DNA of 64,000 bases, taken from assembly GCF_964026435.1 (NCBI RefSeq), contig NZ_OZ032147.1, positions 620,001 through 684,000 on the forward strand, given 5' to 3'. Source of the stretch: Rickettsia endosymbiont of Gonocerus acuteangulatus. GTDB lineage: Bacteria; Pseudomonadota; Alphaproteobacteria; Rickettsiales; Rickettsiaceae. The notes under the pieces were generated by a model, which did no database searches, was not told where the DNA came from, and worked only from the letters and a program-made list of their open reading frames with translations. Shown here piece after piece: positions 7,191 through 62,636 of the stretch. How positions within the stretch are numbered: the stretch's first letter is position 1; the number at the start of each line of letters is the position of its first letter. A program made the position numbers and the translations under genes.

Positions 7191-7420
7191 TCGTCATTGC
7201 GAGCAGTTGTAGGCTGCGTGGCAATCTCATGAAGTGGCAAAACTTACGCTATGTTATAGCAAATATGCTAAAAACTCTTATTACACAGCAATGTTTTATA
7301 GTGAAGCACTTCATAATATCCCTTAATTCATGGGCATTATATCAAACATAGCATAAGTTTTGGTGGTATAAAACTCCTGAGATTGCCGCATCAATGCTAC
7401 GTATCTCCTCGCAATGACAA
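7191..7420. repeat. family C palindromic repeat split by a MITE
   Basis: TCGTCATTGCGAGCAGTTG and GGCAATCTCATGAAGTGG on the left continue after the MITE as TATAAAACTCCTGAGATTG and CCTCGCAATGAC. Removing the MITE (7238-7362) and one GTGG copy restores a normal family C repeat like those at 1361 and 3341. No gene is seen between ctrA and queF. Confidence 0.7.
7238..7362 (+). mobile_element. 125-bp MITE related to the IS701-like element
   Basis: It begins CAAAACTTACGCTATG and ends CATAGCATAAGTTTTG, the same termini as the 1110-bp IS701-like elements of this window. It has no coding capacity. The flanking target duplication is GTGG (7234-7237 and 7363-7366), 4 bp long. The target is a dispersed family C repeat. 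Three other copies are at 22653, 57214 and 60533. Confidence 0.85.
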
Positions 7421-19058: not shown

Positions 19059-20391
19059 ATGAGTCTAAAATCTAAATTGTTAAAATACTCTTTCGTTGTT
19101 GCCATATCAATAAATTTATTGACAATTAATTCAGGAATATTATTGCTTACTTTAAATAATAAAGCAGAAGCTGGAGGAGGACCACCACCACCGCCGGTAA
19201 ATCCAACAACCACATCTATTGACCCTAAATCAGCAGCAAAAGATATTAATGATGAATTAGGTGCAACATTTGATACAGCAAATTTTTTTAATACCTTAAA
19301 AAGGAAAACTAAAAATCAGACTAATAATCATGGTCCTAAACTTGATCCTAAAAAGAACAAGATATTCTATTAAATCTACTTTCAGGAGATTTTTATGATG
19401 CTAAAAAACGCTTATCAGTAATAAAAGACGTAGTAAAAAATAAGAATTTACCATTTTATTCTAAAGTAGATTTACTGGAAAGAATAAACTTAGCTAAAGG
19501 AGTTTATACCAAAGATGCTAATGGTGATATACAGGTAGATCCAATTTTTAATAGCTCTAGTAGTAACTCAACGTATATTTCTAATTTTAATCCAAATTAT
19601 AAATATATAATTTTGTATAGTACGCCAAATGGGAATTTAGAAAAGGATGTTACTGCCCAAGTGGTTGATATTGTAAAAGGTTTTGAAAAAGATTCTAAAG
19701 AAAATTCTTATAGGAATTTTGATGCAACAAAACTTATGCAAATAGAACAAGAAAGAGTTTATAGTTTAATAAAATCAGAAGCTGAATCACTAATAAAATC
19801 AGCTTATGGTAATAATATAGAGTATATTGACTATTATAATAATAATATAAGTGATAATAGTTATGAAAAATATTTTACAAAATATGAAAAAGACGTAATA
19901 ACTAGAGCTTTAGGTTATAAACGTGCCTATGAAGAAAAAACAGGATTATACAAGAGTGAGGTAGATAAACTAGATAGATCAACCTTAAATGAAGAAGAAT
20001 ACATTAAAAAATGTGAAGAAATAATTGAAAAAATTGGAGAAAGTAGTTGGGACACTTATCAAGTTTCTAAACCTGGTAGTAACAGTAAAATAAACTATGA
20101 AGATTACGAAAAACTAGTGATAAATGAAGCAAAAAAACGAGCTGTAATCGCAGGGTTTTAACAGAAGATAATAATAAAATATATGGAAAAAGACTAAAAA
20201 TAGTAAAGGAAGATGGTTCTGCAGAATATGTAGATAATACAGAATTTAATTTAATAAAGGCTGAAAACAATTGGGATTTAACACCAGCAAATATACCACT
20301 TTCTACAGTAATGAAAGATACAAATAATTTATCTGAAAATGAAAGAATCAAAGAATTATTAGCTCGAATTGAATTTTTAGAAAATAACATT
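19059..20391 (+). pseudogene. Sca-type autotransporter, 5' half (signal peptide and passenger part), interrupted
   Basis: It starts with a long signal peptide (MSLKSKLLKYSFVVAISINL, then hydrophobic residues to NNKAEA) and a GGGPPPPPVNP linker, features of secreted Rickettsia Sca proteins. The frame breaks twice. Near 19358 one A appears lost, after which the frame DILLNLLSGDFYDAKKRLS continues to 20161. Near 20160 one T appears lost from a T-run, after which LTEDNNKIYGKRLKIV continues to the end. The coding sequence stops at the IS701-like element at 20392, immediately after CATT. The continuation lies at 44584-47001 on the other strand. The Sca subtype is not recognised; it does not look like Sca2 or OmpB. 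Confidence 0.75.
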
Positions 20392-21501
20392 CAAAACTTA
20401 CGCTATGTTTGGTTCTAAATATCGTAAAGATGGAGAACGCAGCTGTTGTTGCATATAGTCATCTAAAAGCCCTAACTTTATTTGGTAAACCGTTTTACCG
20501 ATTGTATTTGCAGTCCTTTTGAGAAATGCCCAAACTAAAAATGCCCAACTAATATGATTACGTTGAATACGCTGTTTCCTGCATTGACAACGTTCTATCC
20601 CAGTAAGTTGCTTAATTTCTCTGTGCATGCTCTCAATTACCCATCGAAAGCCACACTCATCTTGTGCAGCTTTAGAAGATTTGTGAGTTTTGTTATTGGT
20701 AACAACATACTCAACTCTGTTGGTAGAAACAGTAAATTTAAACAAATTAACATGCTTATTTTTAGCAAAGCCTTTTATATGAATCTCTACTCCATGCCTG
20801 ATCTCTTCATCTGAAAATGTCAACTCTTTTACAGCTTTATAAGGTTTAGAATCGTGCGTTTTACTAACGTTTCTATTGGCTTTAATAGGGGCATAATAAT
20901 ATTTCCCCAGAGAGTCAACATGTTGCATAATTTTGTGTGTAGAATACCATGTGTCAAAAAGTACTGTTTGAAAAGGAATCTTCTTGCTATAAACAGCATT
21001 ATTTAACATGTTTAATAGGTGTTCTAGTTTTGTTGCTCCATCATGATCAGGTGCAAAAATTCGATAATCTATTACCCAAAACTTATTAATATCAGGGTTA
21101 TAATATACCAGACTCACTACTCCTATACCTTTAGTAACTCTACCTGTAGCTCCACTGTACTGCGATCTTGCAATTTCTATTTGCTTCGTATTCCTTTTAT
21201 TTAAAACCGTATCATCAAATATTGTATATCCATTAGATGAAAAAATAACATCATTCTTGATGTGTTCCCATAACAAAGAAGGTGTATATTTTTCATTCCT
21301 TAAAAATCTATTAATAACATCATGACTACATTTCTTTGCATGTTCAGCGTAGTAGGTTAAACTATAATTCTTTTGGCTAACTATTAAAAATTGACAATAA
21401 TCTGTCCTATTAATTGGTATTGCTTGCAACTTTATCCTCTTTGACATGTTTAATTATTTTTACAATAATTTATCACTTTTTTACTCATAGCGTAAGTTTT
21501 G
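20392..21501 (-). mobile_element. IS701-like element (IS4 superfamily), 1110 bp, intact
   Basis: The termini are CAAAACTTACGCTATG and CATAGCGTAAGTTTTG. The left (L) end continues TTTGGTTCTAAATATCG and the right (R) end reads inward as AGTAAAAAAGTGATAAATT. The flanks are unrelated: CATT of an autotransporter gene on the left and TATT of an IS630 remnant on the right. The element therefore marks a rearrangement rather than a simple insertion. Other copies: 21955 (partial), 44653, 47002, 49674 (partial), 57468. Confidence 0.85.
20398..21447 (-). CDS. IS701-like transposase, intact
   Basis: The 349-residue transposase has IFDDTVLNKRNTKQIEIARS (first Asp), VLFDTWYSTHKIM (second Asp) and RWVIESMHREIKQLTG (Glu). 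This is the DDE layout of the IS4/IS701 superfamily, with the QYSG-type segment SQYSGATGRVTKGIGVVSL. It is identical in length and sequence to the copy at 47008-48057, so both are potentially active. Four-bp target duplications of intact insertions fit IS701. Exact family naming needs a database comparison. Confidence 0.85.
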   Translation of the reverse strand: MSKRIKLQAIPINRTDYCQFLIVSQKNYSLTYYAEHAKKCSHDVINRFLRNEKYTPSLLWEHIKNDVIFSSNGYTIFDDTVLNKRNTKQIEIARSQYSGATGRVTKGIGVVSLVYYNPDINKFWVIDYRIFAPDHDGATKLEHLLNMLNNAVYSKKIPFQTVLFDTWYSTHKIMQHVDSLGKYYYAPIKANRNVSKTHDSKPYKAVKELTFSDEEIRHGVEIHIKGFAKNKHVNLFKFTVSTNRVEYVVTNNKTHKSSKAAQDECGFRWVIESMHREIKQLTGIERCQCRKQRIQRNHISWAFLVWAFLKRTANTIGKTVYQIKLGLLDDYMQQQLRSPSLRYLEPNIA

Positions 21502-21752
21502 TATTCTACGATGTCCTGTATGATAACCACTTTTTGCTTTGACATCCCCAGTTTGTTTCTTTAATTTTTTCCACTCTATTATAGTCTTCCTACTAATAGA
21601 GTATATCTCTGAAGTCTCTTTTATTGTTTTACCATCTGTTAAACTTTTTATTACTCGTATTCTTAAATCGTATGAATATGCCTTTGCCATAAGTTTTTCA
21701 TTTAGTATAATCCAACTCATACTGTAAGTCACTACCTTATCGCATTAAGCTA
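21502..21752 (-). mobile_element. IS630-family element B, 5' fragment
   Basis: It carries the first 67 or so codons of a second IS630-type transposase (start 21690; MAKAYSYDLRIRVIKSLTDG, a helix-turn-helix region) and the upstream end of the element. It is cut by the IS701-like element at 21501. Its outer end (reading TAGCTTAATGCGATAAGG on the minus strand) is inserted at a TA inside an IS630-A fragment, breaking that gene after SVGC. Another fragment of element B is at 59470-59778. Confidence 0.7.
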
Positions 21753-21954
21753 TACAACCAACGGATTCAATTAACTCTTTAACTTTAGAATTTTTATGAA
21801 AATTAATGTTATCCATAATAACGGTTTGCCCAGGTTGTAATTCTGTAATTAATACATCCCTAATATAAGTTTTAAAGACTTCTGTATTACAATTACCTTC
21901 AAATATTACAGGAGCAATAAGATTACCATTACAAAGACCAGCTATCATACTTAT
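21753..21954 (-). mobile_element. IS630-family element A, internal fragment
   Basis: It encodes only the central catalytic part of the IS630-A transposase (MIAGLCNGNLIAPVIFEGN to the second Asp in VIMDNINFHKN). On one side it is broken by insertion of IS630-B at a TA, on the other by an IS701-like element after CATACTTAT. Confidence 0.75.
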
Positions 21955-22652
21955 CAAAACTTACGCTATGTTTGGTTCTAAATATCGTAAAGATGGAGAA
22001 CGCAGCTGTTGTTGCATATAGTCATCTAAAAGCCCTAACTTTATTTGGTAAACCGTTTTACCGATTGTATTTGCAGTCCTTTTGAGAAATGCCCAAACAA
22101 AAATGCACAACTAATATGATTACGTTGAAGACGCTGTTTCCTGCATTGACAACGTTCTATCCCAGTAAGTTGCTTAATTTCTCTGTGCATGCTCTCAATT
22201 ACCCATCGAAAGCCACACTCATCTTGTGCAGCTTTAGAAGATTTGTGAGTTTTGTTATTGGTAACAACATACTCAACTCTGTTGGTAGAAACAGTAAATT
22301 TAAACAAATTAACATGCTTATTTTTAGCAAAGCCTTTTATATGAATCTCTACTCCATGCCTGATCTCTTCATCTGAAAATGTCAACTCTTTTACAGCTTT
22401 ATAAGGTTTAGAATCGTGTGTTTTACTAACGTTTCTATTGGCTTTAATAGGGGCATAATAATATTTCCCCAGAGAGTCAACATGTTGCATAATTTTGTGT
22501 GTAGAATACCATGTGTCAAAAAGTACTGTTTGAAAAGGAATCTTCTTGCTATAAACAGCATTATTTAACATGTTTAATAGGTGTTCTAGTTTTGTTGCTC
22601 CATCATGATCAGGTGCAAAAATTCGATAATCTATTACCCAAAACTTATTAAT
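21955..22652 (-). mobile_element. IS701-like element, 3'-transposase partial copy
   Basis: It starts at an intact L terminus (CAAAACTTACGCTATGTTTG) and covers about 200 codons of the transposase C-terminal half. It is cut off where the MITE begins at 22653. The frame is shifted by a one-base loss near 22100 relative to the intact copies (FLVWAFLK region becomes FLFGHFSK). Confidence 0.8.
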
Positions 22653-22777
22653 CAAAACTTACGCTATGTTTGATATAATGCCCATGAATTAAGGGATATT
22701 ATGAAGTGCTTCACTATAAAACATTGCTGTGTAATAAGAGTTTTTAGCATATTTGCTATAACATAGCGTAAGTTTTG
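22653..22777 (-). mobile_element. 125-bp MITE related to the IS701-like element
   Basis: Termini are CAAAACTTACGCTATG and CATAGCGTAAGTTTTG, reverse orientation relative to the copy at 7238. The left flank is an IS701-like remnant and the right flank (TTATATTTTATTCAG) is a family B repeat edge. They do not match, so the junction was recombined after insertion. Confidence 0.85.
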
Positions 22778-22809
22778 TTATATTTTATTCAGATGTAGGT
22801 GAGCTTGTA

Positions 22810-23769
22810 TAGCATAAATCATTAAGATACTGACAGTTTAATAGTATTAAAAACAGCATCATAAAATGTTTCAAAATCTCCTACAACTTTCCTAATTTCA
22901 TTTTTTATCTTAAACCAGTAATGCTCTATAGGATTTAAATCAGGAGAGTAAGTTGGTAAATACAATATGGTACAACCAACGGATTCAATTAACTCTTTAA
23001 CTTTAGAATTTTTATGAAAATTAATGTTATCCATAATAACGGTTTGCTCAGGTTGTAATTCTGTAATTAATACATCCCTAATATAAGTTTTAAAGACCTC
23101 TGTATTACAATTACCTTCAAATATTACAGGAGCAATAAGATTACCATTACAAAGACCAGCTATCATACTTATTCTAAATTTATGTTGATACACCTTTTCT
23201 CCATAACACCTTTGTCCTATAATGCTCCATCCATACTCTTTGCAAGCATTATCCTCTATTCCAGATTCATCAAGATATACTAATTTGTCTTTTGTGATGG
23301 TTTGTATCTTTGCTATAAATTCATTTCTTAATTTAATATCTCTTTTCGGATGAAAATGAGTTTTTTATAGCTATAGCCAAGTTTTCTGATTTGTCTTAAA
23401 ATAGTTACAGATGCAATATTACCCCATTGCTTTGCTAACTCCTTTGATGTTTTATTCATATTAGCTTTAAAAAATTCTTTAAAAGATTCTGAATCTTTTA
23501 TCTTATGACTATGTCCTTTCTGATAACCAGTTGCTGCTTCTAAAGTACCTTGCTTATCTTTTAATTTTTTCCATTTATATATAGTATCACGACTTACATT
23601 AAATAATTTACTTACCTTACTTATTCGTATCCCTGCTTCTACAGCTTTTATAACTTTTAGTCTTAGTTCTATTGTATATGCTCGTGCCATATCTCTTTAC
23701 ATGCTTGTTAATATTTGCTTACTATAACATGATACTCTCGCTCTGTCAGTACCTTAATGACTTATGCTA
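22810..23769 (-). mobile_element. IS630-family element A, copy 1 (960 bp)
   Basis: Terminal repeats TAGCATAAATCATTAAGA and TAGCATAAGTCATTAAGG face each other, flanked by a TA duplication (22808-22809 and 23770-23771). The target is a family B repeat: GTGTAGGTGACCTTATATGTC is split at its TA. The element carries a frameshifted transposase. Confidence 0.85.
22822..23690 (-). pseudogene. IS630-A transposase, frameshifted
   Basis: The frame opens at 23690 (MARAYTIELRLKVIKAVEAG), breaks at about 23360 after KLGYSYKK and resumes to 22822 (ending KLSVS). A run of six T at 23361 replaces seven T in the intact copy at 50082-50939, which explains the shift. It keeps four residues (SFKE) missing from the other copy. 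The DDE parts YLDESG, VIMDNINFHKN and SPDLNPIEHYW are all present on the two segments. Confidence 0.85.
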
Positions 23770-23982
23770 TATGTCATTCCCGCAAAAGCGGGAATCCAGC
23801 ATAAAGCGAGATAAATCGAGCTTTTTATTTAAAAAACTTATTGCTTTTATGTTTATTTTTCTGGATTCCCGCCGTTGCTAAGAATGACATAGAATAATAA
23901 CTGTCCGGTACTATAGAATAAATCACGGGATGACAAAGGAAAATGATCCACGCAACAAAGCCGCCACGGGGTGACGGGTTTT
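23770..23982. repeat. family B repeat remainder downstream of IS630
   Basis: TATGTCATTCCCGCAAAAGC, then GGGAATCCAGCATAAAGCGA, then TGGATTCCCGCCGTTGC and ACTGTCCGGTACTATAG. It is the second half of the repeat that IS630-A split, and it lies directly downstream of the rvhB6e stop. It could terminate the rvh transcript; this is inference. Confidence 0.6.
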
Positions 23983-26900
23983 TTACTTCATATTTCTCAA
24001 ATGGTCTTCTAATTTTCTGAGCTTTCTTCCTGAATTTTCTACCGGTTTTTGGTATTGCGGCATTTTAGCATTTTCTCTATATTTATTAATTCGATCAATC
24101 TGAGCATTTACTTCATCAGTAATAACTTGCTTTCTTTCTTCTATATTATTAAGCACCGATGCACTATATTCATAATTTTTAGCATTGATATTAAAGTTAT
24201 TAACTGCATCTTCAATCCTTTTATCTACAGAAGGCTCTGTCTTACTATCAAAAGATTCTATCGGTTTTTCTCTTTCATATTGTGCTATTAAAGCTGGCAT
24301 TTCCTCAAGCTTAATATCATCTCTTTTGAAATGATCTTTAATTTCTTTATAAGTTCTGTCGATATTTTCTTGAGCTTTTTCATGCATAATCTCGTAATGC
24401 TCTTGACGACGCCCATACCAATCTTCCTTAATAAGGTCTTCGTGTTTTTTATGTGCATTATCTATCATAGTACGCATTTGGGCATCGGTAGCTTTTTCCT
24501 GCATAAACCTATCGCCCATGATTACAGGATCTTCTCCATTTTTAGCTTCTGATAATTTATCATATACCTGATGAACAAGCTTTCTTTTAGATAATTCTTG
24601 ATAAAACTCTACGTCACTCTGTCTACCTGAACGCTCTAATTTTGCTATATATTCAGGAGATATTACATCTGCTTGAGCTCCTAATGTTTCTTTATTAATC
24701 TGCATTTGAAGCTCTTTGAGTTCTCGTGCTCTTTCGTCATCTTTTAGACTTTCACTATAAGTTCTAAGCTGTGGATCATTATAATTAAAGTCATGCCATT
24801 CAGCACTAGTTAGATTACCCTCATATTTATCACGTAAATCTTTACCAACTATCGCAGTAAGTGCTTCTCTCTTTAATCCTGTATAGCCGGCATATATTTT
24901 TTCGCCTATAGCTACACGTTTTTGTTCTTTTAATTCACGTTTAGTTTTCACGCGATTTTCCATTTCTTGCCAACTTCTAAGTGCTCCTATATTTTTACCA
25001 AATAACCCAACTCCTCGCCCTGACATATCCTGATGAGCATTTCTGTAAGCTTTTTGATAATCTTTAGTAAAGCTTGCATCACTTGCAAGCTCACGTAAGC
25101 TTTTTTCCGATTTACCTTTCTCACCTAAATCGGATTTCATGAATTTATCAAGCTCTAGTTTCTGATCACTAGTTAAAGAGCTATAATTTTTTGCACCATA
25201 TTTATTTTTGGCAAATTCATCTCGAAGCTGTGCAAAATTCATAGTTGCTAGTTTTTTCACATCCAAATCACCACCTTTCGGTAAAAACGTTTTATTATCT
25301 AGCAATTTAGAAATGCCGTTTTTATAATCTGCTCCGGCTTGCATATTAACGTCTTTATGGTCTATACCATATTTTCTTTTAACTTCATTTTGCACTGCTT
25401 TGTTAGCCGAAGAACTAATGGCTTTATTGTCAAGCCTACCCATCATAAGTCCTTGATATTTTTTAGCAAAGAACATACTCGTTTGCTCTTGCATTCGGTT
25501 TATTGGCTTACTAATAACTCCTGCTGCATAATTTATCGGTCTATTGACCTGCTTCATGATAGAATCATAAGATTTCTGGTTAACAGCCTGTATCGATGTT
25601 AAATTACCCGAAGTACCTGCAATAAAACTAGCCGTCGATATAGCAGTATCATTAAATTTACTAAGCAAATAAATAGAAACAAATATCAATAACAAGCCAT
25701 CAAGCTGGACGAATTTACCATTTATAAAATTACTAATTCTATTTGCATCTTTAACTAAATCTAAAAACGGTAATTGAATATAACGTTTATCTATACATTG
25801 ATATGCCAAACACTTGGTACCATCAGCTTTGGTATAATCTTCAGGGACTAATATATTTGCTTGAGTGAAATTCTCAATTCCTCCTTTCATCGGTACCGGA
25901 AACCACCAATAAAATATCGAATTACCAATACTGGAGTCTAAATCTTCTGTAAAACTACCAAAAATTTGATTTATAGGTCCTAAATTAGGAAAATCTTTCT
26001 TACAGACAGCAAAACCTAATGTCGATTGTATTTCCGTTTTAATAATCATTCCGATAAAAGCAATACCGACAAATAAAATTATAGGTTGTATAGCATATGA
26101 TATTAATTGTCTTAACCAATTTTCAAATAACGATCTAGTTATATTAAATAACATGAAACAAATAAATATCGGTGCCATTGTTATAATCATACCAATAGTT
26201 ATTAGTGCCGTAAGATAAATAATTGTAGCTTTGAATATAAGTAAGAAAATAAAATATAGAGCTATTAAATATAATATAATATAAATAAACCCAAGCGGAT
26301 CTACAAATAATAAAGAAAATAGCTTAGATAAAGTTTGCGGGGAAATAAGAAGATTTAATAAACTTTGACCTGTTGAAGCATCTTGTACTATCTGTAATAT
26401 CTGTGCTAGCCCTTCAACAAAAAATACAAATAAATAATCATGGAAAAATGTCCAAGCTTTACTTGTACTTAATAATATTGAAACTATACTGACTTTTAGT
26501 ATTCTAACTACCAGCTCAACATGAGTCATGTTTATGTTTCCTATTAAAAAGGAAAATCCAGTAAACATTATATAAAGAGTTAAAAGAGCCGAAACACTTA
26601 ACCTATAGCTAAGTGTTTCAATTATTTGCTGATAAGTCTGCCTTACAATTCCAGGATCTTTATCGCTAGTACCAAATAACTCATTCTTTATTAAATTTGT
26701 TAAAAATTGTAGCGGATCAGGTCTTGTATCGCTAACTCCGGATTTTATGACTACCCTATATTGTCCACTATTATCATCATAAAATTTGTCTAAAATTTTA
26801 AAATATAGGGGAGATTGAGCATAATTTGAAGCTTGATCGCAAGGTAGGCTAGTACAACCATATTGATAATTTATACCACCGGCTTGTAAAAATTTCCCAG

Positions 26901-27474
26901 TACTGCTAATACTATAAAATTCATAACCTTTGCTTGTAATTGGTTCACCTAAATGCTGCGTTATACCTTTTGGGCTACGCTGTGAATCTGACGACATATT
27001 AGGATTAGAACCTTTATCAGCAATTAAAAAATAAAGCCCTACTCCGTTTGTAAGTATACAAGGAGCATTATTAATAGGTGCATCGCTTGGCGTAGGAGTT
27101 GGACACATCTTACCGTCAGTAAATTGACATGGCTGCAACTTAACGCAAAAATCAGCTAAGGTAGTAAAATTATTCTGCTGCCCATACCATGGACACCATG
27201 CCGATAACATCCCTGAAGTATTCTTGTCCCCAGACATATAATCCCAAGGTCTTACCATAACTGTTAAAGGATAACCATTTACTTTATAAGCACTATCCCG
27301 CCATGGTGCTACCTGATCCCCCTCCTGTCTTGAAGTAACTTCAGATGGATCATATCTAGAAGAAATATTAAATTTTATAAAACCGAAATCATCCGGATCG
27401 ATACAAGTATCCCCAGTACACCCCGACAGTGCCAATAACGATATTAATAATGTAATAAAAATATTTCTGTTCAT
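23983..27474 (-). CDS. rvhB6e: VirB6-like type IV secretion protein RvhB6e (lipoprotein)
   Basis: The start is set at 27474 (MNRNIFITLLISLLALSGCTGD), giving 1163 residues with a lipobox Cys. The open frame continues upstream to 27606, but that part is translated family C repeat and is rejected. Layout: lipoprotein signal, a Cys-containing periplasmic region to about 285, then a TrbL/VirB6 membrane core (about 290-610) starting SVSALLTLYIMFTGFSFLIG and containing KAWTFFHDYLFVFFVEGLA. After that comes a charged Arg/Lys/Glu tail of about 550 residues. VirB6 is the inner-membrane channel component of type IV secretion systems. Rickettsiales carry several long, divergent copies with extra domains. 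This is the last gene of the cluster. Confidence 0.9.
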   Translation of the reverse strand: MNRNIFITLLISLLALSGCTGDTCIDPDDFGFIKFNISSRYDPSEVTSRQEGDQVAPWRDSAYKVNGYPLTVMVRPWDYMSGDKNTSGMLSAWCPWYGQQNNFTTLADFCVKLQPCQFTDGKMCPTPTPSDAPINNAPCILTNGVGLYFLIADKGSNPNMSSDSQRSPKGITQHLGEPITSKGYEFYSISSTGKFLQAGGINYQYGCTSLPCDQASNYAQSPLYFKILDKFYDDNSGQYRVVIKSGVSDTRPDPLQFLTNLIKNELFGTSDKDPGIVRQTYQQIIETLSYRLSVSALLTLYIMFTGFSFLIGNINMTHVELVVRILKVSIVSILLSTSKAWTFFHDYLFVFFVEGLAQILQIVQDASTGQSLLNLLISPQTLSKLFSLLFVDPLGFIYIILYLIALYFIFLLIFKATIIYLTALITIGMIITMAPIFICFMLFNITRSLFENWLRQLISYAIQPIILFVGIAFIGMIIKTEIQSTLGFAVCKKDFPNLGPINQIFGSFTEDLDSSIGNSIFYWWFPVPMKGGIENFTQANILVPEDYTKADGTKCLAYQCIDKRYIQLPFLDLVKDANRISNFINGKFVQLDGLLLIFVSIYLLSKFNDTAISTASFIAGTSGNLTSIQAVNQKSYDSIMKQVNRPINYAAGVISKPINRMQEQTSMFFAKKYQGLMMGRLDNKAISSSANKAVQNEVKRKYGIDHKDVNMQAGADYKNGISKLLDNKTFLPKGGDLDVKKLATMNFAQLRDEFAKNKYGAKNYSSLTSDQKLELDKFMKSDLGEKGKSEKSLRELASDASFTKDYQKAYRNAHQDMSGRGVGLFGKNIGALRSWQEMENRVKTKRELKEQKRVAIGEKIYAGYTGLKREALTAIVGKDLRDKYEGNLTSAEWHDFNYNDPQLRTYSESLKDDERARELKELQMQINKETLGAQADVISPEYIAKLERSGRQSDVEFYQELSKRKLVHQVYDKLSEAKNGEDPVIMGDRFMQEKATDAQMRTMIDNAHKKHEDLIKEDWYGRRQEHYEIMHEKAQENIDRTYKEIKDHFKRDDIKLEEMPALIAQYEREKPIESFDSKTEPSVDKRIEDAVNNFNINAKNYEYSASVLNNIEERKQVITDEVNAQIDRINKYRENAKMPQYQKPVENSGRKLRKLEDHLRNMK

Positions 27475-27543
27475 TTTAAATCGATTTGTCATTCCGTGGC
27501 TTATCCACAGAATCCATAAAAATTTTAATATTTTAAATTTCAA

Positions 27544-27642
27544 CATCATTGCGAGGAGAAACTTTAAGTTTCGACGAAGCAATCCCAGAATTCTTAAATG
27601 TTTCATAAGATTGCCACGTCGCCTACGGCTCCTCGCAATGAT
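27544..27642. repeat. family C repeat between rvhB6e and rvhB6d
   Basis: CATTGCGAGGAGAAACTTTA, AGCAATCCCAGAATTC and CATAAGATTGCCACGTC, ending CTCCTCGCAATGAT. It fills the only large gap within the rvhB6 run and creates the spurious upstream extension of rvhB6e. Confidence 0.6.
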
Positions 27643-27643
27643 G

Positions 27644-30304: not shown

Positions 30305-30310
30305 AATTTT

Positions 30311-33196: not shown

Positions 33197-33202
33197 ATTA
33201 CC

Positions 33203-38336: not shown

Positions 38337-38369
38337 GACTAGCTACTTGCCTCGTGTGTGATAAACGTC

Positions 38370-38520
38370 ATTGCGAGGAAAAATTGAAAATTTTGACGAA
38401 GCAATCCAGTAAAAAATGCTAACTTATAGCATTTTTTATTATTTTTTTGGATTGCCACGCTCCTTACAGTCGCGTAGCTCAGACGATTTTTTAGACTTAC
38501 AACAACAAGTAACCATAATC
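38370..38520. repeat. family A hairpin repeat between rvhB4a and rvhB6a
   Basis: GTCATTGCGAGGAAAAATTG, then GCAATCCAGTAAAAAATGC, then a pairing TAGCATTTTTTATTATTTTT and TTGGATTGCCACGC, gives a long stem. The related unit occurs at 8371-8430 and 56636-56700. It is the only non-coding gap (190 bp) between rvhB4a and rvhB6a and could attenuate expression between them. Confidence 0.6.
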
Positions 38521-38528
38521 CATTAAAT

Positions 38529-40946
38529 CTACAATGTTTTGACTGCTTCATAGAATATAGGTAACCATTTTTCCGGATCATTCCCGTATTTTTCCCTAAT
38601 TTGATCGAGTAGTATAATAGTTTCCACTCTACCCGATAAAACACTAATTATATTATTCATACCGTCTAAATTTACTTTAGCAACTACTGCATCTACTCCT
38701 TGTTTTATCAAAAAGTAACGTGTTGTAGGATCGGTAGTTTTAATTAAAACATATTCTCTCTGACTTAACATAAAAGCACTACGATAAATATCGGTAGCTT
38801 TAAGGTTAGGCAGAAAGATTTGCGTAGCCGTCTGCTGAATTAACGTATCACTAATTCTACTTTTTGCTGCATCTTCTACGCTTTGAGTAGCAAATATAAC
38901 AAAAGTATTTAGTTTTCTCAACACTTTTAACCAATCTTTGATTTTAGGGGCAAAGACTGGATTATCGATTAAAGCCCAAGCCTCATCAAGTACTATCATA
39001 GTTTTTTGCCCATCCAAAGAAATATTTATACGATGGAAAATATACAACAACACCGGAGCAAGACTTATTGGGTCTTTAAGTAATTCAGTCATATCAAAAC
39101 CAAATACCCTAGCTTTTTGCAAATCAATATCATCTATTTCATTATCGAATACTTTAGCATGAGAACCATTTCCAACCCACATTGCAATTCTACTTGCTAG
39201 ACTATCTGGTGTATCGATTCCAAGGAATGCTACCACATTACTAAGCCGTCTATCTTTTTTCTCTAGTCTAAAATTACCACTCACTGCTTGCGATAATATC
39301 TTATTATCTTGTGCTGTTATACTCTCACCATTAGAAGTTACAAGAACCCTTAACCATTCTAAAATAAACGTTCTATTTTCACTAGTATCTTCAAGCTGCA
39401 ATGGATTAAAGTTACATTTTAAACCTGGATCTATAACTGTATAAACACCGTTTATAGCTCTGATAAATATTTCAGCACCACGATCTTTATCAAAAAAGAA
39501 CATACGTGGTTTGAATTTTTGTGCTTCAGCACATAAGAAATTCATAAGAACAGTTTTACCGGCACCAGTCGGGCCTATGATTAAAGTATGCCCAACATCT
39601 CTTACATGGAAATTAAAATAGAACGGAGTACCTGAAGTTGTGTCGAGTACTGTGACATATTCACCCCAATGGTTATCTCGCACCTTTCCAATAGGATAGT
39701 TATGTTGAGAGGCAAAACTAGCCATATTAAGGGTATTTATAGTGGATGTACGAACTATATACTCCATATTTCCTGGAAGCTGTCCCCAATAGCTAGGCTC
39801 CATGTTAATTTTTTCTCTAACAGGCTGAATTCCTGAATTAAAAAGCTCAACAGATGCCATTGATAATATATCTTCTAAAGCTTTAATACTATTTGCAGAA
39901 CATAAAAGTGATAGATGATGTTCTCCAAAACCAATATCACCACTAGTTGCCATATCAAGTGCCGTTGATATTTCAGCAATTTGTGAAGTAGCTTTATCAC
40001 CTGCCTGTATCATTCTATTTTGCTGTAATTGCATTTTACCAATAGCTACGGTTCTGTTAGCAAATATAAAACTTTGAGTCATCACAAACTCAAATGGCAT
40101 TTGCAAAAATCCATCAAAAATCCCTGCAGAAGTATTAGGTCCATATTCAAGAATACTTATTATTCCAGCATATTTAGTTCCAATCGAACTTCTTGCCTCA
40201 ATAGTACGTGATTCAAAAAACAAGCGATGTGTTGGTAAATATTCATCAATAGTACCACGCGGTACTGCTACTGGACCTGGGGAGTCGCCACAATTAACCA
40301 AAGATGAAAGAAATTCTAGCATTTCACAATAATTACCTGTAGTAGTTTTACGAACTCCAAGAATCCTAGCCCCATAACTTATAAATGTATTAACTATTCT
40401 GTTTGACATTTCTTGGAGATTTTCTTTCATCTCTTTCATGTCATTTTCCCAAGCATTTTTATTAGATTTTTGTCTAAGCTTCTTTAAAAAATACTCAACT
40501 ATAGCTGCACCACCAGTATCAGGCTTGTATAAAATACTGACATATAATTCATTAAAAAATGATCTAGCACCTGCGTGTTTTTTACGCCATTCTGCTCCGA
40601 GATATGTAATAAAATCATTTGGTACTTTTACAGTAGGATCATAGGTAAATTCCGTGTTATCAAATATTACTGCTTTACGTCTTCTGATAGTATGGAAATA
40701 TACCACTATATTTCCTGATGCCATGTTTTTAAGTAAAGCATTCCGTATATTCTTTTTAATATCTAAATCTTCATCATCAGCTGTTTCAAAAGAAAAGCCG
40801 TTTATTTTAATAACTTGTAGGAGCGAATTATCTTTAGTTAAAATGGTATTACTATCCCAATGGCATTTATAAGGGATAAAATGCGAAGTAGGTCTCTCTT
40901 GTTTAGACCTCAATTCTTTAGCTGCTCTAGTTCTAAATAACTTCAT
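38529..40946 (-). CDS. rvhB4a: type IV secretion ATPase VirB4 (RvhB4a)
   Basis: The 805-residue CagE/TrbE/VirB4 ATPase has Walker A GPTGAGKT at residues 458-465, Walker B MIVLDEAWALID around Asp654, and the downstream FVIFATQSVEDAAKSRISDT, as in full-length VirB4. It energises substrate transfer at the inner membrane. Rickettsiales usually have two virB4 genes; this one, linked to virB3 and the virB6 array, fits rvhB4a. The length and motifs show that it is intact. Confidence 0.95.
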   Translation of the reverse strand: MKLFRTRAAKELRSKQERPTSHFIPYKCHWDSNTILTKDNSLLQVIKINGFSFETADDEDLDIKKNIRNALLKNMASGNIVVYFHTIRRRKAVIFDNTEFTYDPTVKVPNDFITYLGAEWRKKHAGARSFFNELYVSILYKPDTGGAAIVEYFLKKLRQKSNKNAWENDMKEMKENLQEMSNRIVNTFISYGARILGVRKTTTGNYCEMLEFLSSLVNCGDSPGPVAVPRGTIDEYLPTHRLFFESRTIEARSSIGTKYAGIISILEYGPNTSAGIFDGFLQMPFEFVMTQSFIFANRTVAIGKMQLQQNRMIQAGDKATSQIAEISTALDMATSGDIGFGEHHLSLLCSANSIKALEDILSMASVELFNSGIQPVREKINMEPSYWGQLPGNMEYIVRTSTINTLNMASFASQHNYPIGKVRDNHWGEYVTVLDTTSGTPFYFNFHVRDVGHTLIIGPTGAGKTVLMNFLCAEAQKFKPRMFFFDKDRGAEIFIRAINGVYTVIDPGLKCNFNPLQLEDTSENRTFILEWLRVLVTSNGESITAQDNKILSQAVSGNFRLEKKDRRLSNVVAFLGIDTPDSLASRIAMWVGNGSHAKVFDNEIDDIDLQKARVFGFDMTELLKDPISLAPVLLYIFHRINISLDGQKTMIVLDEAWALIDNPVFAPKIKDWLKVLRKLNTFVIFATQSVEDAAKSRISDTLIQQTATQIFLPNLKATDIYRSAFMLSQREYVLIKTTDPTTRYFLIKQGVDAVVAKVNLDGMNNIISVLSGRVETIILLDQIREKYGNDPEKWLPIFYEAVKTL

Positions 40947-41113
40947 TACATAACCTAATTTAACTATTTTGATTTTTGGTTCTTATGACATCATACTGTG
41001 GCTTGTACCTGTGGTATCTTAAGATAGAATCTATAACATAAGACCCCGCAATCAAGTCACGGGGTAACAATAAAATCTAGACTCTGTAGACAAACTACGA
41101 AATGACATCAAAT
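40947..41113. repeat. spacer between rvhB3 and rvhB4a with a small hairpin
   Basis: GACCCCGCAATCAAGTCACG continuing GGGT forms a small stem at 41043-41066 (ACCCCG pairs with CGGGGT). The spacing to rvhB4a is longer than expected for an operon, and the hairpin could lower read-through. No gene is seen here. Confidence 0.4.
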
Positions 41114-41401
41114 TCAAATTCCGTATGAATTTGCCCTATAATAAAATTTATTAGGACATTGGCTAGTTCTTGACATCTTGTTTAAATATAATTCTATAAA
41201 TCGTGGCTCTTTAAAGCATATAATATAGGCTATTAAATGTAGACCTGCCGCAATGAATAAAATCATAATGCCGTTATTCCAAATAAATACTATCATAGTC
41301 ATGATCATATTTAACGCCGCAAATTTAATACTCACACCGAATATCATTGGTGGTCTAGTTAGTCCTACGAATAAAAGATCGGTTGCTAATGTTCCTGCCA
41401 T
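41114..41401 (-). CDS. rvhB3: type IV secretion protein VirB3 (RvhB3)
   Basis: This 95-residue protein has LATDLLFVGLTRPPMIFGVS at the N-terminus, the VirB3 signature LTRP, and two membrane helices (NMIMTMIVFIWNN and GIMILFIAAGLHLIAYIIC). VirB3 is an inner-membrane partner of VirB4. The position directly upstream of rvhB4a matches the conserved virB3-virB4-virB6 order. Confidence 0.92.
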   Translation of the reverse strand: MAGTLATDLLFVGLTRPPMIFGVSIKFAALNMIMTMIVFIWNNGIMILFIAAGLHLIAYIICFKEPRFIELYLNKMSRTSQCPNKFYYRANSYGI

Positions 41402-41741
41402 ATACTTTTCCTCTTTTATATTTTTTATTCAATAATAAACATAAACTTAAAAATTATTAATATAAATTTATATTTTTGTTTGCAAACATAGTTAATAATA
41501 TTGAGTTTGGTATTTTACTATTAACAAAATGTACATTATTACCTATACTTTCAATCACCTTAATTGCTATTTTGATTAATTCTTCTTCTAAATAGTGATT
41601 ACTATCATTTAGCATTGATTTTAATAAATTAGCATTTTGTATTTTCATATTATACTGAAATCCTCTAAATATCTGGGACATTTCATATGGAAATATTAGA
41701 TGTTCTGCTCCTAAAGTAACAGCAATTGTTGCAGCAGTTAA

Positions 41742-42268
41742 ATCTCTTTTGGGTATATTCCCCGCCGCTTGCGGCGTAATATGGCGGAATGAGCAAATAT
41801 ATACATAAAAGTCATAATGTTACGGTACTGCTGTATCACATGGTATTTCCAGCAAAATATCGCCGAGCAGTGTTTGACGTATCAGTTGATCAAGTATTAC
41901 GAGAAATATGTTTAGAGATAGAAAAGAGATATCAAATAAAATTTTTAGAAATAGGGGTTGATGAAGATCATGTCCATTTTTTGGTACAATCTGTACCAAC
42001 CTATAGCGTAACAAAAATAGTAACAACAATTAAAAGTGTTACAGCTCGTCAAATATTTAGACAGTGTCCACAGGTAAAGAAACAATTATGGGGTGGAGAA
42101 TTTTGGACTGATGGATATTTTACGAGTACGGTAGGTAAGCATGGAAATGAGAATATGATAGGAAAATACGTAAAAAACCAAGGCAAGGAATATCAGAAAC
42201 TGCATGAGGATCATCAGCTAGCTTTCTTCTAAAATACCCCGCTGCTTGCGGCGGGGATTACTTTTATT
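41742..42268 (+). mobile_element. IS200-type element (copy B), 527 bp, inside argB-like gene
   Basis: It is the same 527-bp unit as copy A, beginning ATCTCTTTTGGGTATATTCC after a GTTAA flank and ending GGGGATTACTTTTATT. It interrupts the amino-acid kinase pseudogene without apparent duplication. Confidence 0.88.
41789..42232 (+). CDS. tnpA: IS200-type transposase TnpA
   Basis: The 147-residue Y1 transposase is identical to the copies at 11648, 51931 and 57551, with the HUH motif HVHFL and the C-terminal Tyr helix. Intact. Confidence 0.92.
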   Translation: MSKYIHKSHNVTVLLYHMVFPAKYRRAVFDVSVDQVLREICLEIEKRYQIKFLEIGVDEDHVHFLVQSVPTYSVTKIVTTIKSVTARQIFRQCPQVKKQLWGGEFWTDGYFTSTVGKHGNENMIGKYVKNQGKEYQKLHEDHQLAFF

Positions 42269-42775
42269 AGAATTTCTGGATTAACTATAATAGGCTCGCT
42301 CACAAAGCCAATATCTATAACATCACGATTTGCAACTCTTCTATGTGATAATTTTGATTTTCTTGCTTGTAGTAAATTCGCATCTTTCCCTGAAATACCA
42401 ACCGCATAACAACCTTTATTATTAAGTTTTGTCACTATAAGTTTGTTGACATAACTTGATAATATTTCCATAATAATAGGATTATCTACGAAACTATTTT
42501 CACTTACTTCATTAAATTTTTTACTGAAACTTTTATCCAATTGTGATATTAAAGATAGATTTCCTAAATCTATATGGTCATGTATTATATAGATTTTAGC
42601 ACCGCACATCTCAAGCAGCTTGATAGATTCTATAAAAGAAGCAAATAACTGCTCATTAATAATAATATTGATGGGTAACTTTAAAACTATAGCTTGATTT
42701 CTAAGCTCATTACTACATGTGATTATATCCCTAATTATAGTAATGTCGCCTAATTCAGAAATATTATCTACTTCT

Positions 42776-43414
42776 TTACTTTTCAAGTTTGATGCATTTT
42801 GCCAAACTAGTTTTAAGTTCTCTTGCACCTTCTTTACTCCTACTACTTACATAAATAAGATTACATGAGTAGTTTAAAGTTGCAAGAAAATTCTGTGCTT
42901 CTAGGTTAAGGTTTTTACGATCTGTAACTTTATCGGATTTTGTAAAAATAATTTGAAAATCTCGCTTATTTGCAAGTAATAACTCTGCTACTTTTTTATC
43001 GTTTTCTTTAATTCCCCTTCTTGAATCTATCAATAAGTTAACTAATTTTAGATTGTCACTCTTGCGTAAGTAATGATTAATTAATATTTCCCACTGCTCT
43101 TTAACTTGATTTGGAACTTCTGCAAAACCATAACCTGGTAGGTCAACTATTATAAGTTTATCTACAAGATTAAAGAAATTAATCTGCCTAGTACGCCCTG
43201 GGGTATTAGAAACTTTAGCAAGATTTTTATTATTGCATATAGTATTTATTAAGCTCGATTTGCCAACATTTGATTTACCAACAAAAGCAATTTGCGGTAA
43301 TGCAAAATTAGGAAGTTGCTTTATATCCATAGCACCAGCTACAAATTTGGCTTGATGACGAAAAAGCTTATTATCACCTACTACTTTTTTATTAATTACT
43401 TTTTCATCAATCAT
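42776..43414 (-). CDS. engB: ribosome-assembly GTPase EngB (YsxC/YihA)
   Basis: This 212-residue protein starts at [10 protein letters not shown] (43414). The open frame reaches 43459, but the extra 15 residues have no family support. G1 is GKSNVGKS at residues 46-53, G2/G3 are [12 protein letters not shown] and [10 protein letters not shown], and G4 is TKSD. The protein is needed for late 50S ribosome maturation. Its 3' end overlaps the argB-like start by 53 bp. Confidence 0.94.
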
Positions 43415-43483
43415 AATTTTGCAACCTATATTAGTACGTCCTGTATTATCCTGTAGCAAAATTGCCTGCGTGGATCAGTTTCT

Positions 43484-43560
43484 CCGTCATTGCAAAAAGA
43501 AACTGTTTTGTATAACTCCATGAGATTGCCACACTCTACTTAAGTTCGCTCACAATGACG
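43484..43560. repeat. family C repeat upstream of engB
   Basis: GTCATTGCAAAAAGAAACTG, CATGAGATTGCCACACTC and CGCTCACAATGACG match the arms of family C. It lies between engB and the tRNA gene. Confidence 0.5.
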
Positions 43561-43646
43561 ACTCTCGAGTCAGGCGGGCAAAGCCAAACCATTCTACACA
43601 ACAATTTTACCACAAGGCAACAATAAAAAAAATTGAAATAAAAATA

Positions 43647-43723
<77 letters not shown>

Positions 43724-43827
43724 ATAATAGAAAATTGATGACTTTGTTTATTAATGTTGTAAACAAAGATTGATGACATAAATGATTAGAGCAAACTAAT
43801 CTCTAGCATCATAAACTACGCATATGA

Positions 43828-43905
43828 ATAAGCGTGGCAACCTCATAAAGCAGAATTCCTGAGATTGTTTCCACCCTCTGCAATGCATTTCCTTGCAATG
43901 ACAAT
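43828..43905. repeat. family C repeat beside the rpmE stop
   Basis: GGCAACCTCATAAAGCAG, AATTCCTGAGATTGTTTCC and TTCCTTGCAATGAC are diverged arms of family C. Confidence 0.45.
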
Positions 43906-43906
43906 C

Positions 43907-44146
43907 TTAACTAGCTTCCTTTTTTTGACTACTGAAAGAAAGACCGGAAAATCTTTTATTAAAATCACTAACGCTTTTGTTAGACTGATTTACTACATTT
44001 CCGATATCTTTATTCCATGCTGGGTGTTTTCTGAAATCAACATCCATTAAAATCTCACCTGCAGGATGAGTTGACATCGTTTCAAAAACATCACTTCCAA
44101 CCTTAATTAAAAACTTTTTATAGTCTGGATGTATCCCATTTTTCAT
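43907..44146 (-). CDS. rpmE: 50S ribosomal protein bL31
   Basis: The 79-residue protein starts MKNGIHPDYKKFLIKVGSDV and has STHPAGEILMDVDFRKHPAW, typical bL31. It lacks the zinc-binding CxxC, so it is of the zinc-independent type. The ATG overlaps the rpmB stop by 4 bp (ATGA), coupling translation. Confidence 0.93.
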   Translation of the reverse strand: MKNGIHPDYKKFLIKVGSDVFETMSTHPAGEILMDVDFRKHPAWNKDIGNVVNQSNKSVSDFNKRFSGLSFSSQKKEAS

Positions 44147-44436
44147 AATGATTTTGCCACCTTAGTCTGAATTATTTTTTTCTTAATAGCTTTAGCTGTA
44201 GTGGATAAAGCATCATTATTAGCTTTTAACATATATGCATCAAACCCGCCAGCTTTTTCAACTGAACTTATGCATCTAGCACTAACTGATAATCTATATT
44301 CTGCGGTTGTTATATCACTTATAAACTTAACCGATCTTAAATTAGGCTCAAAACGCCTTCTAGTTTTACGCTGTGAATGCGATACATTATTGCCATATAA
44401 AACACCCACTCCAGTGAGTTCACATTTACGAGACAT
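44143..44436 (-). CDS. rpmB: 50S ribosomal protein bL28
   Basis: The 97-residue protein begins MSRKCELTGVGVLYGNNVSH, followed by SQRKTRRRFEPNLRSVKF, the bL28 signature. It is upstream partner of rpmE. In the present arrangement the 3' end of the split autotransporter lies 147 bp upstream of its start. Confidence 0.95.
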   Translation of the reverse strand: MSRKCELTGVGVLYGNNVSHSQRKTRRRFEPNLRSVKFISDITTAEYRLSVSARCISSVEKAGGFDAYMLKANNDALSTTAKAIKKKIIQTKVAKSL

Positions 44437-44652
44437 AAGCTTAACCTATCAAACTTTAACTTATATAATAGATAAAAAATATAAAGTAATACTTGTATAC
44501 TGTCAAGAAGTAATTACTAACATTACTTACTTAAATTCAAATAGATAAAGAGAATGAAGCCTTATCTCTTTATCTATTTTGTTCTACAAATTAATTTTTA
44601 ACTTCACTAACCCTTGATTGCTTTTATATTTTTTATGGGTGTAATGATTATA

Positions 44653-45762
44653 CAAAACTTACGCTATGTTTGGTTCTAAATATCGTAAAGATGGAGAACG
44701 CAGCTGTTGTTGCATATAGTCATCTAAAAGCCCTAACTTTATTTGGTAAACCGTTTTACCGATTGTATTTGCAGTCCTTTTGAGAAATGCCCAAACTAAA
44801 AATGCCCAACTAATATGATTACGTTGAATACGCTGTTTCCTGCATTGACAACGTTCTATCCCGTAAGTTGCTTAATTTCTCTGTGCATGCTCTCAATTAC
44901 CCATCGAAAGCCGCACTCATCTTGTGCAGCTTTAGAAGATTTTTGAGTTTTGTTATTGGTAACAACATACTCAACTCTGTTGGTAGGAACAGTAAATTTA
45001 AACAAATTAACATGCTTATTTTTAGCAAAGCCTTTTATATGAATCTCTACTCCATGCCTGATCTCTTCATCTGAAAATGTCAACTCTTTTACAGCTTTAT
45101 AAGGTTTAGAATCGTGCGTTTTACTAACGTTTCTATTAGCTTTAATAGGGGCATAATAATATTTCCCCAGAGAGTCAACATGTTGCATAATTTTGTGTGT
45201 AGAAATACCATGTGTCAAAAAGTACTGTTTGAAAAGGAATCTTCTTGCTATAAACAGCATTATTTAACATGTTTAATAGGTGTTCTAGTTTTGTTGCTCC
45301 ATCATGATCAGGTGCAAAAATTCGATAATCTATTACCCAAAACTTATTAATATCAGGGTTATAATATACCAGACTCACTACTCCTATACCTTTAGTAACT
45401 CTACCTGTAGCTCCACTGTACTGCGATCTTGCAATTTCTATTTGCTTCGTATTCCTTTTATTTAAAACCGTATCATCAAATATTGTATATCCATTAGATG
45501 AAAAAATAACATCATTCTTGATGTGTTCCCATAACAAAGAAGGTGTATATTTTTCATTCCTTAAAAATCTATTAATAATATCATGACTACATTTCTTTGC
45601 ATGTTCAGCGTAGTAGGTTAAACTATAATTCTTTTGGCTAACTATTAAAAATTGACAATAATCTGTCCTATTAATTGGTATTGCTTGCAACTTTATCCTC
45701 TTTGACATGTTTAATTATTTTTACAATAATTTATCACTTTTTTACTCATAGCGTAAGTTTTG
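44653..45762 (-). mobile_element. IS701-like element, 1110 bp, inactive transposase
   Basis: It has the same termini as the copy at 20392. It is flanked by TATA on both sides (44649-44652 and 45763-45766), a clean 4-bp target duplication inside the last barrel strand of the autotransporter. The transposase is broken by two single-base changes (an extra A near 45204 and a lost A near 44862). Confidence 0.88.
44659..45708 (-). pseudogene. IS701-like transposase, two frameshifts
   Basis: It corresponds to the intact 349-residue protein elsewhere, but the frame shifts at about 45204 (extra A in GTGTAGAAATACC) and at about 44862 (missing A in CTATCCCGTAAG). The DDE residues are otherwise retained. 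Confidence 0.85.
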
Positions 45763-47001
45763 TATATTCAAATACTACATTTATATTCTTCTTTTTTAAA
45801 AGAACATTACCTCCAATATTATAACCAAATTTAGGCTGTTTTGATATAATAATCTTCTCTTCTATTATTTGATTATTTAAAACTGCCTTAGCATTAACTT
45901 TTGTATCTTTATTATAAAAATGATTTTCTATACTCCTATACAAGCTTGGCACTAGCGTTATATCATTTAAAACCTTTATCGATTTAAATTCTACCTTACC
46001 ACCTAAACTAGTCGTTAATAGACGATTTGACTTCTTTTGAATCATTAATTTTTGTACAAAATCATTTCCTTTATAACCACTACTTCTTGAATAATCGTAT
46101 TTTAATCCAATATTTGGTATTAAGTATAAATCATAATTTGTACGATACTTATAATTTAATAATGCTTCAAAATTAAAGCTATTATTTTGATATTTACTAA
46201 TAATATTATTAGCAGATGTAGCTTTATTTTTAATATAATTATGACCAACAGATGCTATAGCTTGCAATGAAAAGTTTTTCGGTAATTCTTTTAAACCATA
46301 AACACTTAATAAATGTCCATTAAGTGCGGTCTTAGCAAACTTCTTATTATATTTAAAATGCGACTCAATTCTTGAATAAGCTATACCTATTACGTCAGAG
46401 CTATTACTAAGTTCTGTGTCCATACCGATAGTTACACCGCTAGTGCGTCCTTGATATTTCGGTATGCTTCTCCATGCTTTTTGATTGCTTACTCCATATA
46501 AACTACTGATCCATACTCCTCTGTTTATTGCGTCCTCTTCATCACCACCAGCAATCGCAGCATTAGGCAACAACAATCTACCATGAATACCCATATGAAT
46601 AGGTTTATTAGTAATAGAAGCCACTTGATTATGCAAAGTAACTTCTTCAGATATTTGCTTTTTTACAATTAAAGATTCCAGGTTTTGAGATTTTGAATTT
46701 AATAAACTTAGCTCTATTATTATATTCTCATAATCTTCTGGTGAGCATTTCTCTAAAAATGCTAGAGTATTGATCACTAAATATAGTTGGAAATAAATCG
46801 GGATGTGTTCTTATTATACTAACAAAATCTGGGACCTCTTTTAAAATTTTTAATATATCTATCAAATTTTGATCAAAAGATATTGATGCATTTTCACCAT
46901 TATTATTTAAAGCAAATAATCCAGTAATTTTTTTACTTTTTAATTCATCTAATTGTTTTTTTGCATCTTCAAGCTCATTAAGTATATCTAAGTTATTAAT
47001 G

Positions 47002-57213: not shown

Positions 57214-57338
57214 CAAAACTTACGCTATGTTTGATATAATGCCCATGAATTAAGGGATATTATGAAGTGCTTCACTATAAAACATTGCTGTGTAATAAGA
57301 GTTTTTAGCATATTTGCTATAACATAGCGTAAGTTTTG
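57214..57338 (-). mobile_element. 125-bp MITE related to the IS701-like element
   Basis: Termini CAAAACTTACGCTATG and CATAGCGTAAGTTTTG; CAAG is duplicated on both sides (57210-57213 and 57339-57342). It interrupts the YhcG remnant at its boundary with the RPE-like repeat. Near-identical to the copy at 22653. Confidence 0.87.

Positions 57339-59864: not shown

Positions 59865-62636
<2,772 letters not shown>

What the first reader, a model, noticed from the sequence alone, without database searches (positions are those of the whole stretch)
19059..47001. One Sca-type autotransporter gene is cut into two halves 26.6 kb apart on opposite strands, and the halves rejoin in frame across a CATT
Seen: the 5' half (plus strand) ends ...GAAAATAACATT at 20391 and the 3' half (minus strand) begins CATTAATAACTTAGAT at 47001. 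Both abut the same L terminus of an IS701-like element. With one CATT kept, the frame runs LARIEFLENNI into NNLDILNELEDAKKQ. The first half supplies the signal peptide and the second the barrel with a normal C-terminal strand. A 4-bp duplication is also what clean insertions of this IS make (TATA at 44653). Inference: insertion, then inversion of roughly 28 kb carrying rvhB6e through rpmB. A chance match of both TSD and frame is unlikely.
Basis: partly seen in the sequence, partly recalled or inferred. Interest (0 to 1): 0.85.

Follow-up and report, generated by a model that had tools for sequence, protein, structure and literature searches.

The report
Rickettsia sca2 gene split by IS701
In this Rickettsia genome a surface-protein gene (sca2 type) was broken by a jumping DNA element and its two main parts now lie 26.6 kb apart on opposite strands; it is a clear case of a known kind of gene decay, but the element ends show that it was not one plain insertion followed by one plain flip.

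Summary
Confirmed: one sca2-type autotransporter gene is split. Piece A (19059-20391, +) and piece B (45763-47001, -) are adjacent in four relatives within one open frame of 900-924 codons; one relative (Diachasma alloeum symbiont) shows the empty site with a single CATT. A stayed with cysS, B with rpmB.

Corrections: the "clean" TATA copy (44653-45762) is a second insertion in the same gene and cuts off the last 21 residues. Both pieces also carry frame breaks.

The proposed mechanism is incomplete. Both pieces abut the same (L) end, and the two IS701-family copies (identical over 1110 bp) are in direct orientation. One ordinary insertion plus recombination between inverted copies cannot give that. 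A partial survey found two L-R inversions, a second L-L split (TSD GATA), and an L-L double element still in place elsewhere (3159 bp, TSD GAGT, empty in three relatives).

Best model: an L...L inverted pair entered sca2 at CATT; recombination with other copies (one in IS630, one in a helicase gene whose front part lies 1.27 Mb away) then split and inverted it. An in-place 28-kb inversion is not shown: the right-hand neighbour is not the expected one.

The parts
17509..18885 (-). cysS, divergent neighbour of the gene, still attached to piece A
   Evidence: PF01406; next to the intact gene in G003 and G013
19059..20391 (+). piece A: signal-peptide-like start and passenger part of the sca2-type gene, with two internal frame breaks
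   Evidence: 65-87% protein identity to the intact gene in 4 relatives
20388..20391 (+). CATT, one copy of the target duplication
20392..21501 (-). IS701-family copy 1 (strand of its transposase), L end towards piece A, R end against TATT and an IS630-family fragment
   Evidence: NF049921 343.1 bits, cut-off 250
21502..21954 (.). IS630-family fragment next to the R end of copy 1
21955..22652 (-). truncated IS701-family copy
22653..22777 (.). 125-bp MITE with the same 16-bp ends
22807..23768 (.). IS630-family copy
23945..44583 (-). VirB6-, VirB4- and VirB3-like genes, GTPase gene and rpmB: block collinear with piece B in relatives, inverted relative to the cysS-A block
44584..44652 (-). C-terminal piece of the same gene (last codons and stop)
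44653..45762 (-). IS701-family copy inserted in the 3' end of the gene, TSD TATA on both sides
45763..47001 (-). piece B: rear passenger and beta-barrel, with one internal frame break
   Evidence: PF03797; NF052625 Rick_Sca2 454.5 bits over its barrel part; 93-95% identity to 4 relatives
46998..47001 (-). CATT (AATG on the plus strand), second copy of the target duplication
47002..48111 (-). IS701-family copy 2, L end towards piece B, R end against AATA and a helicase-type gene
48112..49673 (+). rear part of a helicase-type gene; the front part ends in AATA against an L end at G000:1943025

Best explanation
An sca2-type autotransporter gene of a bellii-like Rickettsia was interrupted at CATT by an IS701-family structure with two outward L ends (an inverted, probably nested, pair of copies). 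Homologous recombination among the genome's roughly 157 copies then separated the two sides. The A-side copy recombined with a copy lying in an IS630 element at the rvhB6 end of the block, inverting the rvh-rpmB-B block. The B-side copy exchanged its R side with a copy that had split a helicase-type gene. A further copy (TSD TATA) entered the C-terminus and frame breaks accumulated, so the gene is dead. Shown: one ancestral gene, CATT duplication, empty site, L-L adjacency, the helicase split with AATA at an L and an R end, the second insertion, and an L-L double element in place elsewhere. Inferred: that the sca2 insert was such a pair, and the path and order of the recombinations.
For: Intact contiguous gene in 4 relatives and empty CATT site in G017. 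Both L ends and direct orientation. The helicase-type parts, complementary in coverage of one homologue, carry AATA at an L and an R end. 55 of 94 full-length copies lack matching 4-base flanks, which fits much exchange between copies, although at least 3 of these 55 sit at a single site in relatives. Two L-R splits with inverted copies, 13.3 and 8.8 kb. L-L recurs: 689356/1974932 with TSD GATA, placed in G003, G012 and G013. An L-L structure of 3159 bp with TSD GAGT is in place at 1371319-1374477; the empty site was found in 3 of 4 relatives. Insertions of the family into its own copies are frequent: 43 flank matches listed, MITE ends and two short chance-like rows included. In the window's own genome the passenger piece is found once, and the other listed barrel matches have at most 33% identity.
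Against: The IS630 partner junction expected after a plain exchange on the A side was not found: no hit with 0 or 1 mismatch, 6 hits with 2. No reciprocal product could be read; the copy beside the helicase front part stops at position 994, followed by an IS200/IS605-type element. Only 5 split sites were resolved, 3 L-R and 2 L-L, two of them (sca2, helicase) by targeted search and not by the survey. In the pair R1206634/L1215443 the contact rests on a 60-base hit; a longer local alignment stopped 43 bases short. In L295207/R308469 the R side is only a 37-bp remnant. Both copies of the second L-L split are truncated. Nearby outward L-L pairs with matching 4-mers, 5 of 112, are only about twice the 2.6 expected by chance.
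Confidence: 0.68

Rival explanations
1. One reading: one ordinary IS insertion in the gene, then one inversion by recombination between two inverted copies.
For: Explains the duplication, the opposite strands and the IS at both edges; splits of this kind do occur in this genome (13.3 and 8.8 kb).
Against: It must leave one flank on L and one on R, and copies in inverted orientation. Observed: both on L, copies direct. The right-hand neighbour is not the old left-hand neighbour of the block.
Confidence: 0.06
2. Aberrant transposition: the transposase paired L ends of two directly repeated copies (or of sister chromosomes) and inserted them at CATT. This breaks the gene and inverts the stretch between in one step, giving L-L flanks, direct copies and an inverted duplication.
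For: Predicts exactly the L-L flanks, direct copies and inverted CATT seen here; the second L-L split (689356/1974932) has the same geometry.
Against: The donor scar cannot be recognised. The copy at piece B carries helicase sequence on its R side while the helicase front part still holds its own L end, so later exchange is needed anyway. No such reaction has been tested for this family here; one literature search for it gave one unrelated paper.
Confidence: 0.18
3. Ordinary insertion and ordinary inversion, followed by an in-place flip of one IS copy through its own 16-bp inverted ends.
For: Gives the observed ends with one extra step; the terminal 16 bp are perfect inverted repeats.
Against: 16 bp is short for recombination (general knowledge, not tested); flipped copies cannot be told from unflipped ones, so there is no independent support; the in-place L-L double element is not explained.
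Confidence: 0.06
4. Assembly error among about 157 near-identical copies.
For: The copies are 1.1 kb and almost identical, a classic cause of misjoins.
Against: The genome is one contig of 1.98 Mb. A misjoin inside an IS would not change which end touches a flank, so L-L would remain. A keeps cysS and B keeps rpmB.
Confidence: 0.02

Closest known systems
Rickettsia Sca2 autotransporter (NCBIfam NF052625)
   Same: Barrel matches positions 1409-1711 of 1730; gene lies divergent from cysS in G003 and G013, and cysS is in most other Rickettsia loci fetched around the best barrel matches; proline run near the N-terminus.
   Different: The intact version in the close relatives is 900-924 codons, about half the model, and here it is in three pieces with frame breaks. 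PMC4564193 (passages only) says R. bellii Sca2 lacks the FH2 and keeps the FH1 region.
IS701 family insertion sequences (NCBIfam NF049921)
   Same: Transposase above the family cut-off (343.1 against 250); matching 4-base flanks in 39 of 94 full-length copies; 16-bp terminal inverted repeats.
   Different: 55 of 94 full-length copies have unlike 4-base flanks, and an L-L double element is present.
IS-mediated inversion and pseudogene formation in IS-rich symbionts (general knowledge)
   Same: Copies of one IS at rearrangement edges; gene loss.
   Different: The L-L edges need a double element or unusual end pairing; two other splits in the same genome keep L-R.

Membership tests
Sca2 (NF052625) | Whole-protein score above the curated cut-off (2200) | tested here: inconclusive
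   Piece B alone scores 454.5, best of 4 models, over the barrel part only; pieces were not joined, and the relatives' protein is about half the model length
Sca2 (NF052625) | Autotransporter beta-barrel at the C-terminus | tested here: met
   PF03797, 101.1 bits, residues 88-336 of piece B; last residues displaced by the TATA insertion
   cysS next to the gene in G003 and G013; in the same locus in 6 of 7 further unnamed loci and 3 of 4 named ones, of which one (L223, L040) seems to be the same 15264-bp contig counted twice; absent from the G012 stretch. Genes between were not checked outside G003 and G013. rpmB was found beside it only in G003, G012 and G013, and rpmB-side DNA in G017
Sca2 | Actin-tail or adhesion function | not testable with these tools
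   the gene is broken here
IS701 | Transposase of the family | tested here: met
   NF049921 343.1 bits, cut-off 250
IS701 | 4-bp target duplication | tested here: met
   39 of 94 full-length copies; empty sites for CATT, TATA and GAGT; one copy (245857) overlaps by 5 bases
Classical inversion between inverted IS copies | One flank on L and the other on R, copies inverted | tested here: not met
   Both flanks on L, copies direct
Single-gene split (against two paralogues) | Pieces meet in intact relatives and share the length of the duplication | tested here: met
   G017, 4-base overlap; one open frame holds both pieces in 4 relatives

The most novel reading that the evidence does not exclude
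This IS701 element regularly uses two like ends: L-L units, born from insertions of the element into its own copies or from pairing of ends of separate copies, move or react as transposons, and a single L-L reaction both broke sca2 and inverted its neighbourhood. Target-duplicated L-L edges would then be a readable fingerprint of this reaction in IS-rich symbiont genomes.
Probability: 0.22. Interest if true: 0.55.

Novelty: new member of a known kind. Interest (0 to 1): 0.36.

Why it matters
It shows in detail how one mobile element dismantles a surface-protein gene in a Rickettsia. It also gives a simple diagnostic, which IS end touches each flank, that separates plain recombination from events with double elements or unusual end pairing. 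With about 157 L ends in one genome, the question can be settled by counting.

Tried and rejected
Two paralogous genes: rejected. The passenger piece occurs once in the genome, the other listed barrel matches are distant, and the pieces meet in relatives.

In-place inversion of 28 kb: not supported. The tsaD-like left neighbour of rvhB6 in G003 and G013 is at 1.81 Mb, the tgt-like gene at 0.52 Mb (both names are my reading of the ORFs), and the right-hand neighbour is a helicase piece. G012 has other genes to the left.

TATT and AATA read as one inverted duplication of a single second insertion: considered, because copy 1 is flanked CATT/TATT and copy 2 AATG/AATA. Rejected when the helicase front part was found ending in AATA against an L end.

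Counting complementary 4-mers genome-wide by end type: uninformative. L-R 330, L-L 269, R-R 100, against shuffled means of 312, 313 and 75 (MITE ends included).

Nearby R-R pairs: 1 of 25 with a matching 4-mer, not followed up. Solved-structure searches: nothing useful. Papers: five searches. No title or abstract start that was listed describes this case (12 of 30 papers listed, 15 of 58, none found, 1 of 1 in each). Only passages of PMC4564193 were read.
Full report
The window is positions 620001-684000 of a one-contig 1.98-Mb genome. Its closest relatives by this gene are G017 and G012, which match the named records of a Rickettsia symbiont of Diachasma alloeum and of Rickettsia sp. MEAM1, and the unnamed G003 and G013.

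Observation. Piece A ends in CATT at 20391 against CAAAACTTACGCTATGTTTGG. Piece B starts with CATT at 47001 on the minus strand against the same terminus. The passenger piece of A has matches in 5 of 23 genomes of the genus (own genome, G017 87%, G013 72%, G003 70%, G012 65%; two further weak matches of 31% in G003 and G013). In the four relatives it lies in open frames of 924, 900, 917 and 916 codons, and the barrel piece of B lies in the same open frames at 93-95%. DNA comparison places the two pieces side by side in all four. In G017 their edges overlap by exactly CATT, so G017 shows the empty site. G003 and G013 have the order rvhB6-type genes, rvhB4, rvhB3, GTPase gene, rpmB, the gene, cysS, rpsB, tsf; G012 has the same as far as the gene, without cysS in the stretch read. 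In the window A keeps cysS and B keeps rpmB, but the two blocks face each other in opposite orientation.

The gene. The barrel matches the NCBIfam Sca2 model best (454.5 bits, positions 1409-1711 of 1730; the whole-protein cut-off of 2200 is not reached by a piece) and the Pfam autotransporter domain. Other Rickettsia loci with barrels 55-64% identical also hold cysS: 6 of 7 unnamed and 3 of 4 named loci, one contig probably counted twice. A paper on R. bellii (PMC4564193, passages) says that Sca2 there keeps the FH1 region and lacks FH2, which fits the shorter gene. A is open in three successive frames and B in two, and the IS copy at 44653-45762 with TSD TATA sits inside the gene, separating the last 21 residues seen in three relatives.

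Why plain insertion and inversion fail. The element is 1110 bp with distinct L and R ends; its transposase belongs to the IS701 family. An ordinary insertion puts L on one side of the target and R on the other. Recombination between copies exchanges what lies beyond, but never which end touches a flank. Here both sides of the target touch L and the copies are direct. So either the insert had two L ends, or something other than recombination between copies acted.

What the rest of the genome shows. With up to one mismatch there are 157 L ends (90 and 67 by strand). Among the stretches fetched, 94 copies are full-length; 39 have matching 4-base flanks and 55 do not. The 55 overstate rearrangement, since at least three of them (245857, 384692, 406320-407429) sit at a single site in relatives. 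Of 314 ends, which include MITE ends, 124 had unique flanks and 89 of these were non-matching. I searched 72 of the 89 in four relatives, with 40 candidates scored per genome. In the rows that I copied, leaving out many repeat and weak rows, 60 had a hit and 57 reached the junction (36 L, 21 R), so misses are possible. Four pairs were the two ends of one element, a control, and all were L-R. Three pairs joined different elements. L295207/R308469 (13.3 kb) and R1206634/L1215443 (8.8 kb) are L-R with inverted copies, as expected of plain inversions; the R308469 side is a 37-bp remnant, and for R1206634 a longer alignment stopped 43 bases short of the junction. L689356/L1974932 is L-L with TSD GATA, placed in G003, G012 and G013; both copies are truncated. 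A helicase-type gene split between 48112 and 1943024, with AATA at an R and an L end, is a further exchange, found by targeted search. With sca2 this makes five resolved split sites: three L-R, two L-L, no R-R. The sample holds more L than R ends, and two of the five were not found by the survey, so the proportions mean little.

An L-L structure in place. At 1371319-1374477 two outward L ends enclose 3159 bp with GAGT on both sides. The uninterrupted site is present in G003 (no mismatch) and in G012 and G013 (one mismatch each), and was not found in G017, an 88% complete genome. Inside, a full copy abuts position 804 of an inverted copy whose R end is missing, with a third copy and a MITE nested within. 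The same 804 junction occurs at 117989. So double elements with two outward L ends and a proper target duplication exist here. They may arise when a copy inserts into another in inverted orientation and the stretch between two direct 16-bp ends is lost, or they may move as units; I cannot tell which.

Model. A double element with two L ends in sca2 at CATT, then one plain inversion between the A-side copy and a copy inside an IS630 element at the rvhB6 end, gives the present order from 19059 to 47001. Exchange between the B-side copy and the helicase copy gives the flank at 48112. The expected leftover of the IS630 exchange was not found, so this path is inferred. One-step inversion by pairing of two L ends is the main rival.

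Limits. The relatives were searched, not held whole. The tsaD and tgt names are my reading of ORFs and were not tested against a family library.

Noticed in passing
window 48112-49673 and G000:1941960-1943024: A helicase-type gene is split 1.27 Mb apart with AATA at an R and an L end of IS701-family copies.
   Followed up: yes
G000:1371319-1374477 (L161): L-L double IS701 structure with TSD GAGT inside an alpha-2-macroglobulin gene; empty site in three relatives.
   Followed up: partly
window 7238-7362, 22653-22777, 57214-57338, 60533-60658: 125-bp MITEs with the same 16-bp ends as the IS701-family element; one sits near the broken rvhB6-side edge.
   Followed up: partly
G000:294099-308469 and G000:1205526-1215443: Two local splits of 13.3 and 8.8 kb with L-R edges and inverted IS ends, as expected of plain inversions.
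   Followed up: partly
G000:1807449-1808645 and G000:523921-525005: tsaD-like and tgt-like genes, neighbours in G003, lie 1.28 Mb apart in this genome.
   Followed up: no
G012 (MEAM1), hits to query 301-378: A short flank sequence of this genome recurs in dozens of places in MEAM1, probably an amplified repeat there.
   Followed up: no
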